From an uncultured Methylomonas sp. (GTDB taxonomy: Bacteria; Pseudomonadota; Gammaproteobacteria; Methylococcales; Methylomonadaceae): DNA of 64,000 nt. The notes under the pieces were generated by a model. It searched no databases. It saw only the letters and a list, made by a program, of their open reading frames with translations, and had not been told where the DNA came from. The stretch covers positions 1 through 64,000 of the forward strand of contig CAKZJE010000019.1 of NCBI GenBank assembly GCA_936941155.1, read 5' to 3'. Made by a program: the position numbers and the translations under genes. Positions 4,336-62,279 of the stretch are shown piece by piece. The first letter of the stretch is position 1. Every line of letters starts with the position of its first letter.

Positions 4336-4369
4336 AGACCTGTTCAGGTTTTAAAAACCTGACAGGTCT
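4336..4369. repeat. 33-bp palindrome family, copy 1 (34 bp)
   Basis: AGACCTGTTCAGGTTTTAAA followed by AACCTGACAGGTCT. This is the AGACCTGTCAGG subtype with one extra T in the left arm. It lies in the spacer downstream of the large membrane-protein gene and could also act as a hairpin at the end of that transcript. Confidence 0.8.
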
Positions 4370-14590: not shown

Positions 14591-14623
14591 AAACCATTCA
14601 GGTCTCGAAGACTTGGAAGGTTT
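14591..14623. repeat. 33-bp palindrome family, copy 2
   Basis: AAACCATTCAGGTCTCGAAG followed by ACTTGGAAGGTTT. The core is CGAAG/CTTCG rather than TTTTAAAA. It is the same subtype as 31831-31863, and both lie close to a MITE copy. Confidence 0.7.
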
Positions 14624-15666: not shown

Positions 15667-15699
15667 AGACCTGTCAGGTTTTTAAAACCTGACAGGTCT
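15667..15699. repeat. 33-bp palindrome family, copy 3
   Basis: AGACCTGTCAGGTTTTTAAA followed by ACCTGACAGGTCT, a perfect palindrome in the rnfA-rnfB spacer. Confidence 0.85.
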
Positions 15700-16628: not shown

Positions 16629-16718
16629 ACACGGCAACTTTACGACTGGCAGTCCTTAAAGGACTGCCAGTCGTGACCTCAGCGATTTTAAGAATAAACG
16701 TGCCTAAGTTGATTTGTA
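16612..16718. repeat. 107-bp dispersed repeat with ACGACTGGCAGTCC hairpin, copy 1
   Basis: It shares nearly its full length with 29586-29692, including GAATGCGCACGAAATAAAC at the left end, the hairpin ACGACTGGCAGTCC/GGACTGCCAGTCGT in the middle, and CTAAGTTGATTTGTA at the right end. The left end codes for the final residues and stop of rnfB. Confidence 0.85.
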
Positions 16719-23518: not shown

Positions 23519-23645
23519 TGTAGGTTGGGTTAGCATTATTGAGCGAAGCGAGATAAGCGTAACCCAACATACAGCGTTAAAATAAACGCACTTTGTTGGG
23601 TTACGCTCTTTTTTCTGACGAAAAAAGCAGCTAACCCAACCTACA
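23519..23645. repeat. TGTAGGTTGGGTTAGC palindromic unit
   Basis: The outer arms TGTAGGTTGGGTTAGC and GCTAACCCAACCTACA are exact reverse complements at the two ends. Inner arms GCGTAACCCAACATA and TTGTTGGGTTACGC add a second nested hairpin. It occupies most of the ccmH-ccmI spacer. The stretch before it (23430-23445) carries a half copy of the ACGACTGGCAGTCC repeat. Confidence 0.8.
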
Positions 23646-23752: not shown

Positions 23753-23784
23753 AGACCCGTCAGTTTTTAAAACCAGACAGGTCT
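23753..23784. repeat. 33-bp palindrome family, copy 4 (degenerate)
   Basis: AGACCCGTCAGTTTTTAAAA followed by CCAGACAGGTCT. It ends about 20 bases before the ccmI start codon. Confidence 0.7.
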
Positions 23785-27850: not shown

Positions 27851-27890
27851 CAAAATTTTTTAAGACAACCAGTCGTCTTGAAAAATTTTG
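27851..27890. repeat. GACGACCAGTCGTC-type palindrome, copy 3
   Basis: CAAAATTTTTTAAGACAACC followed by AGTCGTCTTGAAAAATTTTG. Confidence 0.75.
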
Positions 27891-28172: not shown

Positions 28173-28202
28173 CTGGAGTACAAAACATGTTTTGTACTCC
28201 AG
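28173..28202. repeat. Perfect 30-bp palindrome
   Basis: CTGGAGTACAAAACA followed at once by its exact complement with no loop. It lies about 130 bp downstream of the porin stop; possibly a terminator-like hairpin or a protein-binding site. Confidence 0.6.
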
Positions 28203-31830: not shown

Positions 31831-31863
31831 AAACCTTTCAGGTCTTCGAGACCTGAAAGGTTT
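31831..31863. repeat. 33-bp palindrome family, copy 5
   Basis: AAACCTTTCAGGTCTTCGAG followed by ACCTGAAAGGTTT, a perfect palindrome just outside the end of the interrupted MITE copy. Confidence 0.8.
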
Positions 31864-31871
31864 GGGTGACA

Positions 31872-32175
31872 ATAAACCGCATCCATTCAGAAATACATAG
31901 TTTTTCTTGATTAGAAAGATACCACAGCTAACACCGTCATACTGGCATGGATGCCAGTATCCAGTCACAAGGATGTGATAGTTTGATTAAAACTCACCAT
32001 CCCTGGCACTGGATACCCGCATCCTTGCGGGTATGACGTTTTAGCTGAGACATATTGCTAATCAGGTAGTTTTTTAAAATGGTTAGATGCTATGTAAACG
32101 TGTAGAGACGCAAAATATTGCGTCTCTACGGTTCAACAAAAAACTACGTTTCTCAAATTAGATGAGGTTTAAATC
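31872..32175. mobile_element. MITE copy 3, inverted and interrupted
   Basis: Reverse complement of the MITE at 8748, 14666 and 37712. The left part (31872-31905, ATAAACCGCATCCATTCAGA...) and the right part (32067-32175, ending CTCAAATTAGATGAGGTTTA) are split by an unrelated 161-bp element. This fills the 412-bp gap between the PstS-like gene and the phosphodiesterase gene. Confidence 0.85.
31906..32066. mobile_element. 161-bp palindromic element nested inside the MITE
   Basis: The ends are inverted: CTTGATTAG on the left and CTAATCAGG on the right. Inner arms ATACTGGCATGGATGCCAGT and ATACCCGCATCCTTGCGGGT make further hairpins, with TATCCAG and CTGGATA facing each other. The 8-bp sequence TAGTTTTT is present on both sides (31898-31905 and 32067-32074) and once in uninterrupted MITE copies, as expected of a target-site duplication. 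Confidence 0.8.
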
Positions 32176-38247: not shown

Positions 38248-39993
38248 ATGTCTCTTATTTTTAATAAGCCCAAACAACCCCACAAGCCTGTCGCGACTAC
38301 TTTTGGAAGCCGCAGGATAGGGCTGCTCGGCTTTATTATGTGCAGCATGGTGTTGTTAATTGTTCGCGCCGTTGATTTGCAAGTTGTGAATAAACAGTTT
38401 TTGCAAACACAAGGCGCAAAACGCCATATCAGTGTTGTGCCTGTAGCAACCTATCGTGGCAAAATTTTTGATCGTGATGGCGAAGTGATGGCAATTAGCT
38501 CGCCCGTGCAATCGGTTTGGGTCAATCCACAAGAACTGGATGCTACGCAGAAAGCTAAATTAAAACAAATGATTGCGCTGCTGGAATTACCTAAAGACAA
38601 AATCAAAGTTTTAGCCAATCCAGACCCTAAACAACGCTTTGTGTATTTAAAACGCAGAATTAGTCCTGAATTAGCCGAAAAAGTAAAACTTTTGCAAATT
38701 AGCGGCATTTATTTTGAACGCGAATTTAAACGTTTTTATCCAGCAGGGCCTATGGCAGCACACATTGTTGGCTTTACCAATGCGGATGATCTGGGGCAAG
38801 AAGGCATGGAACGCGCCTTTGAAGAAAATTTAGCCGGCACAGCAGGCAGCAAACGGGTGATTCGCGATGGAAAACGCCGCATTATTGAAGATGTGGAAAA
38901 TATTAAAGAACCCGTGCCCGGACAAGATTTAACCTTGAGTATTGATCGGCGCATTCAATATTTAGCCTATCGAGAATTGCAAGCTGCTTTTATTGCACAT
39001 CAAGCAAAATCAGCGTCCTTAGTGGTATTAAATGCCAAAACGGGGGAAATATTAGCCGCCGTAACACAACCTGCGTTTAATCCGAATAGTCGAAAAAATT
39101 TAACTGAAAATGTGTATCGCAATCGCGCCATCACCGATGTTTATGAACCCGGCTCTTCAGTAAAACCTTTTGTGGTTGCCGCCGCATTAGATCGCAACTA
39201 TATCCCTGAAAATGCTAAATTTATTAGCGATGGCGCAATTCAAATCGGGCGAAACTTAGTCAAAGACGGGCACAATTATGGCGTGTTAGATTTGGCGGGA
39301 GTATTAAAAAAATCCAGTAATATCGGCGCGGCACAAATCTCATTAAAAATGCCCAGCCATTATTTTTGGAATGTTTACAATCAGTTAGGATTTGGTACAT
39401 CACCTGGCACAGGTTTTCCCGGAGAAGCCAGCGGCTCTTTGTTGAGTGTAAATCGCGTGCATGGTTTTTCACAAGCGGCGTTGTCGTTTGGTTATGGTTT
39501 ATCCGTATCAACTTTGCAATTAGCAAGAGCCTATACCGCATTGGCTGATAATGGTGTTTTACATTCATTAAGCTTGTTAAAAAGAGACCACGATGTGGAT
39601 GCGAAAAGAATTTTCAAAAAAAGCACGGCAAAAAAAGTGCGCAAAATGATGGAGCAAGTTATAGAAGTGGATGGAACAGCTTATGAAGCGCGGGTGGATG
39701 GCTATCGCGTTGCAGGCAAAACCGGAACGGTCAGAAAAGCGACGCATGGCGGCTATTCCGATAAAAAATATTTTGCGGTATTTGCGGGAATGGCACCTGC
39801 TAGCAATCCACGCTTTGTGATTGTGGTGATGATTGACGAGCCTAGCGAAGAACAATATTACGGTGGATTGGTGTCTGCACCGATTTTTTCCAAAGTGATG
39901 ACAGGCGCATTACGAATTTACGGAGTTGAATCCGATGGTGACAATACCGTGCCGATTTTATTAACCAAAAAGAACATCCATGAAGCTGAATGA
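38248..39993 (+). CDS. ftsI: Septal peptidoglycan transpeptidase FtsI (PBP3)
   Basis: Class B penicillin-binding protein that cross-links septal peptidoglycan with FtsW. A short cytoplasmic tail and a membrane helix (IGLLGFIMCSMVLLIVRAVD) precede the pedestal domain (YRGKIFDRDGEVMAISSPVQ). The transpeptidase domain has the catalytic serine in YEPGSSVKPF, the SxN motif in LKKSSNIGAAQ and the KTG motif in RVAGKTGTVRK. At 581 residues it is a normal length. No strong ribosome site is seen before the ATG. It overlaps murE by 14 bases. Confidence 0.96.
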   Translation: MSLIFNKPKQPHKPVATTFGSRRIGLLGFIMCSMVLLIVRAVDLQVVNKQFLQTQGAKRHISVVPVATYRGKIFDRDGEVMAISSPVQSVWVNPQELDATQKAKLKQMIALLELPKDKIKVLANPDPKQRFVYLKRRISPELAEKVKLLQISGIYFEREFKRFYPAGPMAAHIVGFTNADDLGQEGMERAFEENLAGTAGSKRVIRDGKRRIIEDVENIKEPVPGQDLTLSIDRRIQYLAYRELQAAFIAHQAKSASLVVLNAKTGEILAAVTQPAFNPNSRKNLTENVYRNRAITDVYEPGSSVKPFVVAAALDRNYIPENAKFISDGAIQIGRNLVKDGHNYGVLDLAGVLKKSSNIGAAQISLKMPSHYFWNVYNQLGFGTSPGTGFPGEASGSLLSVNRVHGFSQAALSFGYGLSVSTLQLARAYTALADNGVLHSLSLLKRDHDVDAKRIFKKSTAKKVRKMMEQVIEVDGTAYEARVDGYRVAGKTGTVRKATHGGYSDKKYFAVFAGMAPASNPRFVIVVMIDEPSEEQYYGGLVSAPIFSKVMTGALRIYGVESDGDNTVPILLTKKNIHEAE

Positions 39994-41455
39994 GTTATTA
40001 GCAGAATTTGCGCAAGTTGATGCGACGATAGAAATCACCGGAATTGCAACAGATAGCCGCGAAGTTGCAACAGGCTATGCGTTTATTGCGTTGCTCGGTG
40101 CTGAAAAATATATTGCGCAAGCTATCCAATCTGGCGCAACTGTGATTATTTTTGATGCACAAGTAAACCTGTCAAGTCTTAAAGACCTGACAGGTTTGGA
40201 TTCTGTAACCTGCGTTGAAATACCGAATTTAGCTGAAAAAATCGCCGATATTGCCGCTCGATATTATGACTATCCTAGCCAAAAACTAGAGATTATTGGC
40301 ATCACAGGCACTAACGGCAAAACCAGTTGCAGCCAATTTTTAGCACAACTTTTACCGGATTCAATGGTGATAGGCACATTAGGCTGGGGAACGTGGGGAA
40401 GCGTTGAAATGACAGGCTACACCACGCCCGATGTTTTAACGTTGCAAAAAATATTAGCCAAAACAGTCGCAGCCAAGAAAAAAATGGTGGTGATGGAAGT
40501 TTCATCGCATGGTGTGCAAGAAAAACGCATTGCCAATACTTTTTTTAAAGGCGCGGTGTTTACCAATTTAAGTCGCGACCATTTGGATTATCACGGCACG
40601 ATGGAAGAATATTTCCAAGCAAAATTAGGATTATTTAAACGCACTGAATTAGAGTTTGCAGTTATTAATCGTGATGATGAATACGGGCGAAGAATTATTG
40701 CAGAACTTGCGCCGTCCATAGCATTGTGGACATTCAGCGTAAACCTTCCAGGTTTTAAAAACCTGGAAGGTTTGGGGGTACGAGATATTCAAGCCAAAAA
40801 CATTCAGTGTTCGATTAATGGCATTGAGTTTGAAGTTTCTTGTGGTAATGAATCAACCGTAATTAACAGCCGTTTATATGGCGAATTTAATGTTGAAAAT
40901 ATGCTGGCGGTTTTAACAACGCTCTTAGCATTGGGATTTTCTTTAAATGAAGCTGCCGCAAAAGTTTCTGCATTGCAATCTGTGCCCGGGCGGATGGAAT
41001 ATTTTGGTGGCGATAACCAACCTGTTGTCTTTGTTGATTTTGCGCATACCCCCGATGCACTGGAAAAAGTATTGCAAAGCGTCAAACATCACAACCCTAA
41101 CACTTTGACTGTAGTCTTTGGTTGTGGCGGCAATCGTGATGCAGGAAAACGCCCTTTGATGGGAAGTATTGCGGAAAAGTTAGCCGACAAAATCATCATC
41201 ACCGATGACAACCCGCGCTTTGAAGAAGGTGATGTGATTGTCGCGGATATTTTAACAGGCTGCGCAAACAAAAATCTTACGGTGATTCGAGACAGAGCCT
41301 TAGCGATTGAAACTGCCATTTTGCAAGCAAAAACAGGCGATTGCATTGTGATTGCAGGGAAAGGGCATGAGGATTATCAAGAAATCAAAGGCATAAAAAC
41401 ATCCTTCAGCGATCAAATAATTGTGAAAAATATTTTAGAAAACCGGAAAAAATAG
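39980..41455 (+). CDS. murE: UDP-MurNAc-tripeptide synthetase MurE, with two in-frame palindrome insertions
   Basis: Adds the third residue of the peptidoglycan stem peptide. The ATP loop is GITGTNGKTSCSQFLA, and VMEVSSHGVQEKRI and FTNLSRDHLDYHG are typical. The signature TDDNPRFEEG indicates meso-diaminopimelate as substrate. Two short peptides coincide with 33-bp palindromes: NLSSLKDLTGL (40165-40197) and NLPGFKNLEGL (40741-40773). Compared with E. coli MurE from memory, both lie in variable stretches, one between the N-terminal beta strands and one in the central domain. They are probably tolerated loops. All catalytic motifs are present, so the enzyme should work. Confidence 0.95.
   Translation: MKLNELLAEFAQVDATIEITGIATDSREVATGYAFIALLGAEKYIAQAIQSGATVIIFDAQVNLSSLKDLTGLDSVTCVEIPNLAEKIADIAARYYDYPSQKLEIIGITGTNGKTSCSQFLAQLLPDSMVIGTLGWGTWGSVEMTGYTTPDVLTLQKILAKTVAAKKKMVVMEVSSHGVQEKRIANTFFKGAVFTNLSRDHLDYHGTMEEYFQAKLGLFKRTELEFAVINRDDEYGRRIIAELAPSIALWTFSVNLPGFKNLEGLGVRDIQAKNIQCSINGIEFEVSCGNESTVINSRLYGEFNVENMLAVLTTLLALGFSLNEAAAKVSALQSVPGRMEYFGGDNQPVVFVDFAHTPDALEKVLQSVKHHNPNTLTVVFGCGGNRDAGKRPLMGSIAEKLADKIIITDDNPRFEEGDVIVADILTGCANKNLTVIRDRALAIETAILQAKTGDCIVIAGKGHEDYQEIKGIKTSFSDQIIVKNILENRKK
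40165..40197. repeat. 33-bp palindrome inside murE, copy 6
   Basis: AAACCTGTCAAGTCTTAAAG followed by ACCTGACAGGTTT. It lies wholly within the murE reading frame and encodes NLSSLKDLTGL. Confidence 0.9.
40741..40773. repeat. 33-bp palindrome inside murE, copy 7
   Basis: AAACCTTCCAGGTTTTAAAA followed by ACCTGGAAGGTTT, a perfect or near-perfect palindrome. It encodes NLPGFKNLEGL in the same phase as copy 6. Confidence 0.92.
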
Positions 41456-57986: not shown

Positions 57987-58106
57987 AAGGAAAGTACCTA
58001 AATAAAAGTTTTAAGCTAACAAGATAAGTATTCATAATAGATGTTATCCAGTGTACACGGAAAACACTCAGCCTTCCCACGAAAGCTATTCAGATGTAAA
58101 TAATGG

Positions 58107-58145
58107 AAAATTTTTAAAGACGACTGGTCGTATTTAAAAATTTTA
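58107..58145. repeat. GACGACCAGTCGTC-type palindrome, copy 4
   Basis: AAAATTTTTAAAGACGACTG followed by GTCGTATTTAAAAATTTTA, upstream of the sensor kinase gene. Confidence 0.7.
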
Positions 58146-58212
58146 CTCTATCTTCTTTGTGTAGAGATAATTCCTCATGATTGCCCCACCCTGATTTTCT
58201 TAATAACTCATG

Positions 58213-62246: not shown

Positions 62247-62279
62247 AGACCTTCCATGTTTTTAAAACCTGGAAGGTCT
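62247..62279. repeat. 33-bp palindrome family, copy 8
   Basis: AGACCTTCCATGTTTTTAAA followed by ACCTGGAAGGTCT, just downstream of the SulP stop. Confidence 0.8.

What the first reader, a model, noticed from the sequence alone, without database searches (positions are those of the whole stretch)
40165..40773. Two 33-bp palindromes inserted in frame within murE
Copies at 40165-40197 and 40741-40773 belong to the same dispersed 33-bp palindrome found in intergenic DNA at 4336, 14591, 15667, 23753, 31831 and 62247. In murE both are read in the same phase and give similar peptides, NLSSLKDLTGL and NLPGFKNLEGL. 33 bp equals 11 codons with no stop in this phase, so insertion keeps the frame. This resembles Rickettsia palindromic elements inside genes, but in an essential cell-wall enzyme and a different lineage.
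Basis: partly seen in the sequence, partly recalled or inferred. Interest (0 to 1): 0.85.

Follow-up and report, generated by a model that had tools for sequence, protein, structure and literature searches.

The report
In-frame mobile palindromes inside bacterial genes
A tiny 33-base palindrome, apparently spread by a relative of known bacterial transposases, sits inside the essential cell-wall gene murE twice and inside many other genes of this bacterial genus, nearly always read so that it adds the same harmless-looking loop peptide.

Summary
40165-40197 and 40741-40773 are copies of a dispersed 33-bp (16-1-16) palindrome with 208 sites in this 4.26-Mb genome, control 0. In 1.18 Mb examined, 64 of 86 copies are intergenic; 19 lie inside 18 called genes, all in one reading phase giving [DN]LPGFKNLEGL or a close variant. 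Eight in-gene copies of two congeners share it: 27 of 27, or 27 of 29 with two terminal copies I set aside. A target-preference model predicts 31%. Orthologues of several genes lack the segment; MurE itself gained only about 2 and 5 residues, so native loop residues were lost too. A Y1 (HUH) transposase related to RAYTs is bracketed by the palindrome here and in relatives, and in two genera carries in-frame copies itself. Best reading: a minimal REPIN-like element, spread by a RAYT-type transposase, tolerated in genes only where it encodes a benign loop. Rickettsia palindromic elements and intragenic REPs are close precedents; the shared phase and the copies inside the transposase gene make this a new variant. 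Mobilisation is inferred; in six copy-rich relatives no bracketed transposase was found.

The parts
39980..41455 (+). murE, 491 codons, uninterrupted; only murE match in the genome at E <= 1e-60
   Evidence: 1 match in G000; Mur_ligase_M and Mur_ligase_C above cut-off; N-terminal Mur_ligase 20.5 bits, cut-off 21; matches E. coli MurE chain 1e8c
40165..40197 (+). 33-bp palindrome copy 1 in murE, read NLSSLKDLTGL (residues 63-73), between strands 53-59 and 77-81 of the model
40741..40773 (+). 33-bp palindrome copy 2 in murE, perfect, read NLPGFKNLEGL (residues 255-265), between strands 248-253 and 267-278 of the model
4336..4369 (.). copy of the same family with one extra base (34 bp)
14591..14623 (.). 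imperfect copy, intergenic
15667..15699 (.). perfect copy, intergenic
23753..23784 (.). imperfect copy with one base missing (32 bp)
31831..31863 (.). copy, probably intergenic (inside a low-scoring ORF)
62247..62279 (.). copy with one unpaired position, intergenic

Best explanation
The 33-mer is a miniature, non-autonomous mobile palindrome of the REP/REPIN type. It is made of two nested mini-hairpins (AAACCT-NNN-AGGTTT) facing each other across one central base. It was most likely spread by a RAYT-like single-strand (HUH/Y1) transposase whose gene is bracketed by the same palindrome. Copies land throughout the genome, and those that damage genes are lost. An in-gene copy survives where it sits in a loop or linker and is read in the one phase that gives the mild peptide [DN]LPGFKNLEGL; being 33 bp it never shifts the frame. 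The two murE copies are such survivors, and around each of them native loop residues were also lost. Shown: family membership, the shared phase, net gains against relatives at several genes, position between strands in the MurE model, and the bracketed transposase in several genomes. Inferred: that this transposase moves the element, that selection causes the shared phase, that the other hosts took it in loops or linkers, and that loss of native loop followed insertion.
For: Family: 208 genome sites, control 0. Location: 64 of 86 copies intergenic although 86% of the sampled DNA is coding; among 60 intergenic copies with both neighbours called, 4 lie between divergent and 20 between convergent genes, against 24% and 17% of intergenic space. 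Phase: 19 of 19 full internal in-gene copies here, 5 of 5 in G001 (11 of 11 copies examined), 3 of 3 in G002 (13 of 25 examined); the target-preference model gives a 31% share, P about 2.6e-14. Net gain against the orthologues aligned: PgeF +16 in 5 of 5, CoaX +18 in 2 of 2, kinase +12 in 2 of 2, transglutaminase-like +18 to +21 in 3 of 3, uracil-DNA glycosylase +13 to +18 in 4 of 4, HI0933-like +8 to +10 in 3 of 3. Transposase: P0002 (contig C32:276-854) has copies at C32:80-112 and 859-891. Of 25 transposase genes matched, all 7 of at least 36% identity, its own included, have 33-bp palindromes next to them, and none of the 18 more distant ones has: the 75% relative in G001 is bracketed (TCC type; one flank mixed TCC/GTC) with one in-frame copy inside; the 53% relative in G074 is bracketed by the ACG type; the G061 fragment has an ACG-type copy beside it, the commonest type among the listed G061 places; G017 has two copies upstream and two in frame inside; G002 (41%) and G080 (36%) are bracketed by a different 33-bp palindrome. 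Structure: MurE model pLDDT 91.5, both blocks between strands, and no invariant column of 27 sequences falls in them.
Against: Six copy-rich relatives (G073, G075, G089, G028, G024, G011) have 33 Y1 matches; of the 30 with loci none is bracketed by the palindrome, and 3 have one copy roughly 0.7-1.5 kb away on one side. No target-site duplication or empty site was seen at DNA level. At MurE site 1, PepN, TilS and asparaginase the net length change is between -3 and +2 residues against most orthologues, so simple insertion does not describe those sites. In TilS and asparaginase, G002 (and for TilS perhaps G001) has what looks like a decayed copy while the copy here is nearly perfect, which needs re-insertion or homogenisation. 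The phase is not absolute: here a signal-peptide copy is read RPSRFLKPGRS and a C-terminal copy supplies a stop, which would make it 27 of 29; on viral contigs one copy (seen on two contigs) is read RPDRFSKPVRS and one TSEVLKTSEVS deep in open frames of 683-761 codons.
Confidence: 0.75

Rival explanations
1. The palindrome spreads by recombination or gene conversion among existing copies, or by template switching that perfects near-palindromes, with no transposase; the transposase gene is just another neighbour.
For: Near-zero net length at several sites; G001's YgiQ copy differs from ours by a matched pair of changes and stays a perfect palindrome; in six copy-rich genomes no bracketed transposase was found.
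Against: Whole segments are absent from all orthologues aligned at PgeF, CoaX, kinase and glycosylase genes. Transposase genes in five genomes are bracketed on both sides, and palindrome type follows transposase similarity. Flanks look unrelated at most sites here, by inspection, though a subset shares flanks.
Confidence: 0.15
2. The single phase comes from where the element likes to insert, not from selection on the peptide.
For: Flanks are not random: A is 61% at -4 and C is 0 of 64 at +2.
Against: A flank model built from 51 intergenic copies predicts the observed phase for only 31% of stop-free in-gene insertions; 27 of 27 then has P about 2.6e-14.
Confidence: 0.05
3. The peptide is useful, for example as a shared binding or regulatory tag in many proteins.
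For: The same 11-residue peptide or a variant in 18 different proteins; the YgiQ site is kept in G001.
Against: Many orthologues in relatives do without it; the hosts identified share no function; two copies sit at C-termini; 0 of 35 copies sampled from other genera are in genes, although G017's transposase, outside that sample, has two.
Confidence: 0.05
4. The murE segments are ordinary protein sequence that is palindromic by chance.
For: At site 1 the orthologues have segments of nearly the same length.
Against: Full match to a family with 208 sites and control 0; same phase and like peptide as in 17 other genes.
Confidence: 0.01

Closest known systems
REP / REPIN elements with RAYT transposases (Bertels and Rainey 2011, PMC3116915, passages seen; Nunvar 2010, PMC2817692, passages seen)
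   Same: Short dispersed palindromes in many copies, mostly extragenic; two facing hairpin units that can also form one long hairpin; bracketed HUH/Y1 transposase gene that varies together with the palindrome type.
   Different: Only 33 bp for both halves together, with a one-base centre; no GTAG tag; a transposase that scores below NCBIfam's RAYT cut-off; about a fifth of the copies here lie in genes, in one phase.
TIRtrons / TIRYTs (Di Nocera 2013, PMC3733652, section 16 and passages read)
   Same: RAYT-like gene bracketed by repeats unrelated to GTAG REPs, some of them self-complementary and forming repeat families.
   Different: The parts read describe no in-frame, single-phase protein insertions for that class.
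Rickettsia palindromic elements (described in PMC2229807, PMC3733652 and PMC6649704, passages seen; original papers not seen)
   Same: Palindromic repeats inserted in frame in many protein genes that stay functional. PMC3733652 equates RPE-4 and RPE-6 with short CGTC repeats, so short in-frame elements are not new.
   Different: Unrelated lineage; RPEs are given as 105-146 bp in PMC2229807 and the short ones carry a CGTC tag, absent here. PMC3733652 found no transposase linked to CGTC repeats; here a candidate is linked.
Intragenic GTAG and CGTC REPs (Di Nocera 2013, PMC3733652, passages seen)
   Same: REPs entirely inside ORFs in several species, some genes hit twice; GTAG REPs also have RAYTs.
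   Different: Different tags and sequences; the passages read do not report one phase shared by all copies. Its additional files, which list the encoded residues, were not seen.

Membership tests
REPIN/RAYT system | Transposase with HUH motif and catalytic tyrosine, Y1_Tnp family | tested here: met
   PF01797 at 23 bits, cut-off 23, so only just; HFH and SYIHRNP present in P0002 (motif meaning from PMC2817692 passages)
REPIN/RAYT system | RAYT equivalog score | tested here: not met
   NF047646 57.6 bits, cut-off 80
REPIN/RAYT system | RAYT motif NP(L/V)(R/K)xG | tested here: inconclusive
   P0002 has NPQKHG: Q in place of L/V, the rest fits
REPIN/RAYT system | Gene bracketed by inverted REPs | tested here: met
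   Own genome, G001 and G074 on both sides; G002 and G080 by another 33-mer; G017 and the G061 fragment on one side only; 18 distant Y1 genes not
REPIN/RAYT system | GTAG tag at one end of the repeat | tested here: not met
   No GTAG in the 33-mer consensus
REPIN/RAYT system | Two facing REPs able to fold alone or as one hairpin | tested here: met
   Full 33-mer folds into one 15-bp hairpin, -21.1 and -23.8 kcal/mol for two variants; a half folds alone into 6 bp, -3.1
TIRtron / TIRYT | RAYT-like gene bracketed by non-GTAG repeats that form a repeat family | tested here: met
Rickettsia palindromic element (RPE) | Palindromic repeat in frame inside conserved protein genes | tested here: met
   19 copies in 18 called genes; genes identified
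Rickettsia palindromic element (RPE) | RPE type: 105-146 bp, or short with a CGTC tag | tested here: not met
   33 bp and no CGTC in the consensus; RPE descriptions. RPE sequences themselves were not compared
MITE of a DDE transposase | Target-site duplication | tested here: inconclusive
   None evident in the listed flanks; no empty DNA site available

The most novel reading that the evidence does not exclude
The element has been shaped by selection to be translated: its 33-bp length (11 codons) and its sequence are tuned so that one phase always yields a mild loop peptide, which lets it colonise coding DNA. Its transposase carries the same in-frame peptide in two genera, so each round of spread would start from a copy already proven harmless in a protein. 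That 33 bp recurs in unrelated palindromes beside related transposases fits this.
Probability: 0.25. Interest if true: 0.8.

Novelty: new variant of a known kind. Interest (0 to 1): 0.55.

Why it matters
Protein-coding palindromes are known from Rickettsia and from intragenic REPs, but for the CGTC/RPE kind no transposase was found (PMC3733652, section 16). Here many in-frame insertions, a shared phase and a candidate transposase occur together in apparently environmental genomes, so how such elements enter proteins and how proteins tolerate them become directly testable. It also shows a route by which essential enzymes acquire loops from mobile DNA.

Tried and rejected
The first genome pattern was mis-spaced (five places, each on both strands, with 1-3 mismatches) and was replaced by the right spacing. 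The named-genome MurE scan returned mostly distant orthologues; it served only to place the lineage (L051 Methylococcales, L059 a methanotrophic symbiont) and to build the alignment for the structure model. The wider Pseudomonadota scan, exact pattern only, matched 1 of 299 genomes, the window's own; a Bacteroidota scan could not be started. Literature strings for the DNA and the peptides found 0 papers, as did Methylobacter with dispersed palindromic repeats; a RAYT/REPIN/methanotroph search listed 15 papers, none on this element by title and start of abstract. PADLOC gave nothing for the transposase. I considered and rejected chance and target preference alone.

Limits and dropped rows. The gene calls are from my own codon-model ORF picker, not a standard gene finder; one called gene (DNA polymerase I) is cut by the end of the fetched stretch and one (the LRR GTPase) is named from recall. 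Of 22 copies placed in ORFs, 3 were dropped from the phase count: C19:31831 (ORF score 13, probably spurious), C8:12533 (copy supplies the stop at the C-terminus), C34:10050 (start region of a signal peptide, another phase). With the last two counted, this genome has 19 of 21 and the genus 27 of 29. In G002, L358 (same phase, at the start of an ORF with a non-coding upstream part) was also left out, and 12 of 25 copies were not looked at for phase. The 86 copies here include 10 beyond 2 mismatches, whereas the congeners' lists stop at 2. The 35 copies from other genera are 3 each from five genomes plus 15 from G011 and 5 from G061; many of the G011 and G061 copies share flanks, so they are not independent. 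One search listed 79 matches; I aligned those with loci or fetched stretches, 50. Of 17 in-gene sites in that query 14 were compared; for the other three (C31:19294, 128063, 245319) matches were listed but not fetched.

I also scanned all 26 transposase loci and 30 murE loci.

Full report
WHAT IS THERE. The window lies on contig C19 of a 4,255,482-base genome. Its nearest named MurE relatives include a Methylococcales MAG (50% identity) and a methanotrophic Bathymodiolus symbiont (47%), so the lineage is placed near methanotrophic Gammaproteobacteria; the genus is not named. murE (39980-41455) is uninterrupted, 491 codons, and the only murE match in the genome. It holds two 33-bp palindromes, 40165-40197 and 40741-40773. 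The family pattern ACCTNNCAGGTNNTNANNACCTGNNAGGT with up to 3 mismatches has 208 sites, and the reversed control 0.

ANATOMY. The element is 16 bases, one central base, 16 bases, with sharp ends. Ends are AGA...TCT or AAA...TTT in 76 of 83 copies tabulated, that is 86 less the three dropped in-gene ones. Each half is itself a small inverted repeat, AAACCT-NNN-AGGTTT. The whole folds as one 15-bp hairpin (-21.1 and -23.8 kcal/mol for two variants), and a half alone as a 6-bp hairpin at -3.1. The NNN differs between genomes and mostly changes in both halves together, by inspection: TCC, GAC, TTC and GTC types here, mostly ACG among the listed places of genus g10.

CENSUS. In 1,178,576 bases of this genome my ORF picker called 1,010 genes covering 86% of the DNA. 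Of 86 copies 64 were intergenic and 22 in called ORFs. Three of the 22 were set aside (see Tried and rejected). The other 19 lie in 18 genes and all start at the third codon position, reading [DN]LPGFKNLEGL or a close variant. Genes: MurE (twice), PepN, a transglutaminase-like protein, an RND adaptor, an asparaginase-family protein (below the type I cut-off), an AmpG-type transporter, YgiQ, PgeF, an FGE-sulfatase-domain protein, a kinase with an FGE domain, an HI0933-like flavoprotein, SucB, a type ISP restriction-modification enzyme, type III pantothenate kinase (CoaX), TilS, DNA polymerase I (partial in the fetched stretch) and a family-4 uracil-DNA glycosylase. One more is a leucine-rich-repeat GTPase, named from recall of its sequence only.

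PHASE. Of six frame/orientation choices four are free of stops. In the congener G001, 5 of 11 copies are in genes (all 11 examined); in G002, 3 of 13 examined of 25. All 8 are in the same phase, so the genus total is 27 of 27; the YgiQ site is counted in two species. An insertion-preference model from the flanks of 51 intergenic copies gives that phase a 31% share among stop-free choices, P about 2.6e-14 for 27 of 27. The favoured peptide has hydropathy -0.24 and charge -1; the alternatives are strongly basic (+4) or aromatic-rich (+2). Selection against the alternatives is therefore the likely cause, an inference. In other genera sampled 0 of 35 copies were in genes; 27 of 110 against 0 of 35 gives Fisher P 0.0003, though many of the 35 are not independent and G017's transposase, outside that sample, has two. 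Two other-phase copies here were set aside, and among 55 copies on viral contigs two open frames of 683-761 codons (one seen on two contigs) hold copies in other phases (not tested as genes). The rule is strong in this genus, not universal.

INSERTION OR REPLACEMENT. Seventeen in-gene sites were searched in G001, G002, G010, G003 and G029; 50 of 79 matches were aligned, covering 14 sites. Clear gains over the orthologues aligned: PgeF +16 (5 of 5), CoaX +18 (2 of 2), kinase +12 (2 of 2), transglutaminase-like +18 to +21 (3 of 3), uracil-DNA glycosylase +13 to +18 (4 of 4), HI0933-like +8 to +10 (3 of 3), SucB +4 to +11 (5 of 5), FGE protein +5 and +11 (2 of 2). Near zero or variable: PepN (0, +2), TilS (0 to +2), asparaginase (-3 to +2), DNA polymerase I (-1 to +9) and the restriction enzyme (-1). 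YgiQ equals G001, which has a copy at the same place, a perfect palindrome changed by a matched pair of substitutions, and gains 4 to 6 over the other four. For MurE, 29 orthologues give +2 at site 1 and +5 at site 2 against the medians; none of the 29 loci holds a copy, and the G002 segment at site 1 pairs at 5 of 16 positions. So murE did not simply grow by 22 residues; native loop residues went too. In the AlphaFold2 model (pLDDT 91.5) both blocks lie between strands, and no invariant column of the 27-sequence alignment falls in them. Whether loss of native loop was simultaneous with insertion or later is unexplained.

AGE. In TilS and asparaginase, G002 has a segment resembling a decayed copy at the same place (7 and 8 of 16 pairs), while the copies here are nearly perfect. 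Either copies were renewed here, or insertion recurred at the same loop. In the restriction enzyme, G001 has a different GC-rich repeat-like segment where this genome has the 33-mer.

TRANSPOSASE. The genome has two PF01797 (Y1) matches. One, P0002 (192 aa, C32:276-854), has 33-mers at C32:80-112 and 859-891, and a second-family 33-mer at 221-253; the other has a copy about 1.2 kb away on one side. One search matched 25 transposase genes in 22 of 97 genomes. The seven of at least 36% identity, P0002 included, all have 33-bp palindromes next to them, and none of the 18 more distant ones has. G001 (75%): bracketed, with one in-frame copy inside the gene, PKLDLPGFKNLEGLTPRN. G017 (68-78%): two copies upstream, none seen downstream, two in frame inside. 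G074 (53%): bracketed by the ACG type, read as peptide at both ends of the open frame. G061 (61%, fragment at a contig end): an ACG-type copy beside it. G002 (41%) and G080 (36%): bracketed by AGAGATAACATCCCTTTAAGGGATGTTATCTCT-type 33-mers. So palindrome type follows transposase similarity, and the 33-bp 16-1-16 form holds for unrelated sequences. Against this, in six copy-rich genomes none of the 30 Y1 loci examined of 33 matches was bracketed, so the link is not universal. Earlier loss of the gene, or its absence from the assembly, is one explanation, untested.

DISTRIBUTION. With up to 2 mismatches, 26 of 121 genomes searched, the window's own included, have the palindrome, in 14 of 44 genera and all in the same family, with 1 to 186 copies. 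Of 299 Pseudomonadota genomes drawn, only the window's own matched exactly. Forty-five stretches of viral contigs carry it, with many NNN types and GC from 34 to 65%, so the architecture reaches beyond this family.

PLACE AMONG KNOWN THINGS. It works like a REPIN with its RAYT, and closest to Di Nocera's TIRtrons: a RAYT-like gene bracketed by non-GTAG, sometimes self-complementary repeats. It is not a GTAG REP, and P0002 falls below the RAYT equivalog cut-off (57.6 against 80). In-frame palindromes inside genes are known as RPEs and as intragenic REPs, some of them as short as this. What I did not find in the passages read is a single phase for all copies, or copies inside the transposase gene itself. 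Sequence-string searches found no paper; papers outside the held library, the original RPE papers and supplementary files, which list REP-encoded residues, were not seen.

Noticed in passing
window 16642-16674: A second 33-bp (16-1-16) palindrome family, ACGACTGGCAGTCCTTAAAGGACTGCCAGTCGT; 22 copies in 1.18 Mb, 2 in called ORFs, one also just upstream of the transposase gene.
   Followed up: partly
window 23519-23640: Cluster of inverted repeats beginning GTAGGTTGGGTTAGC, which looks like a classical GTAG-tagged REP.
   Followed up: no
window 28173-28202: Perfect 30-bp palindrome CTGGAGTACAAAACATGTTTTGTACTCCAG.
   Followed up: no
window 31935-32038: Long inverted repeat, 41-nt arms, 22-nt spacer, about 70 bp after a 33-mer copy.
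   Followed up: no
window 27851-27890 and 58100-58151: AT-rich inverted repeats that resemble each other, perhaps another small repeat family.
   Followed up: no
L151:7176-10082 (own genome C34): Four 33-mers about 1 kb apart with similar downstream sequence (TTGTTGCT..), at or upstream of gene starts; in one the copy is read as the basic part of a signal peptide.
   Followed up: partly
L275 (G001 type ISP restriction enzyme): A GC-rich repeat-like segment, read SPLPPFNKGGI, sits where this genome has the 33-mer peptide.
   Followed up: partly
own genome, e.g. C32:20092, C34:89755, C34:125317: A subset of intergenic 33-mers has conserved flanks (GTTTTATCGCCC...TTATACCTGAAA or the reverse), perhaps a longer composite unit with a third half-repeat.
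   Followed up: no
L185, L212 and L193 (viral contigs): 33-mers of this architecture deep in open frames of 683-761 codons, read RPDRFSKPVRS or TSEVLKTSEVS, phases not used by the internal in-gene copies counted in this genus.
   Followed up: no
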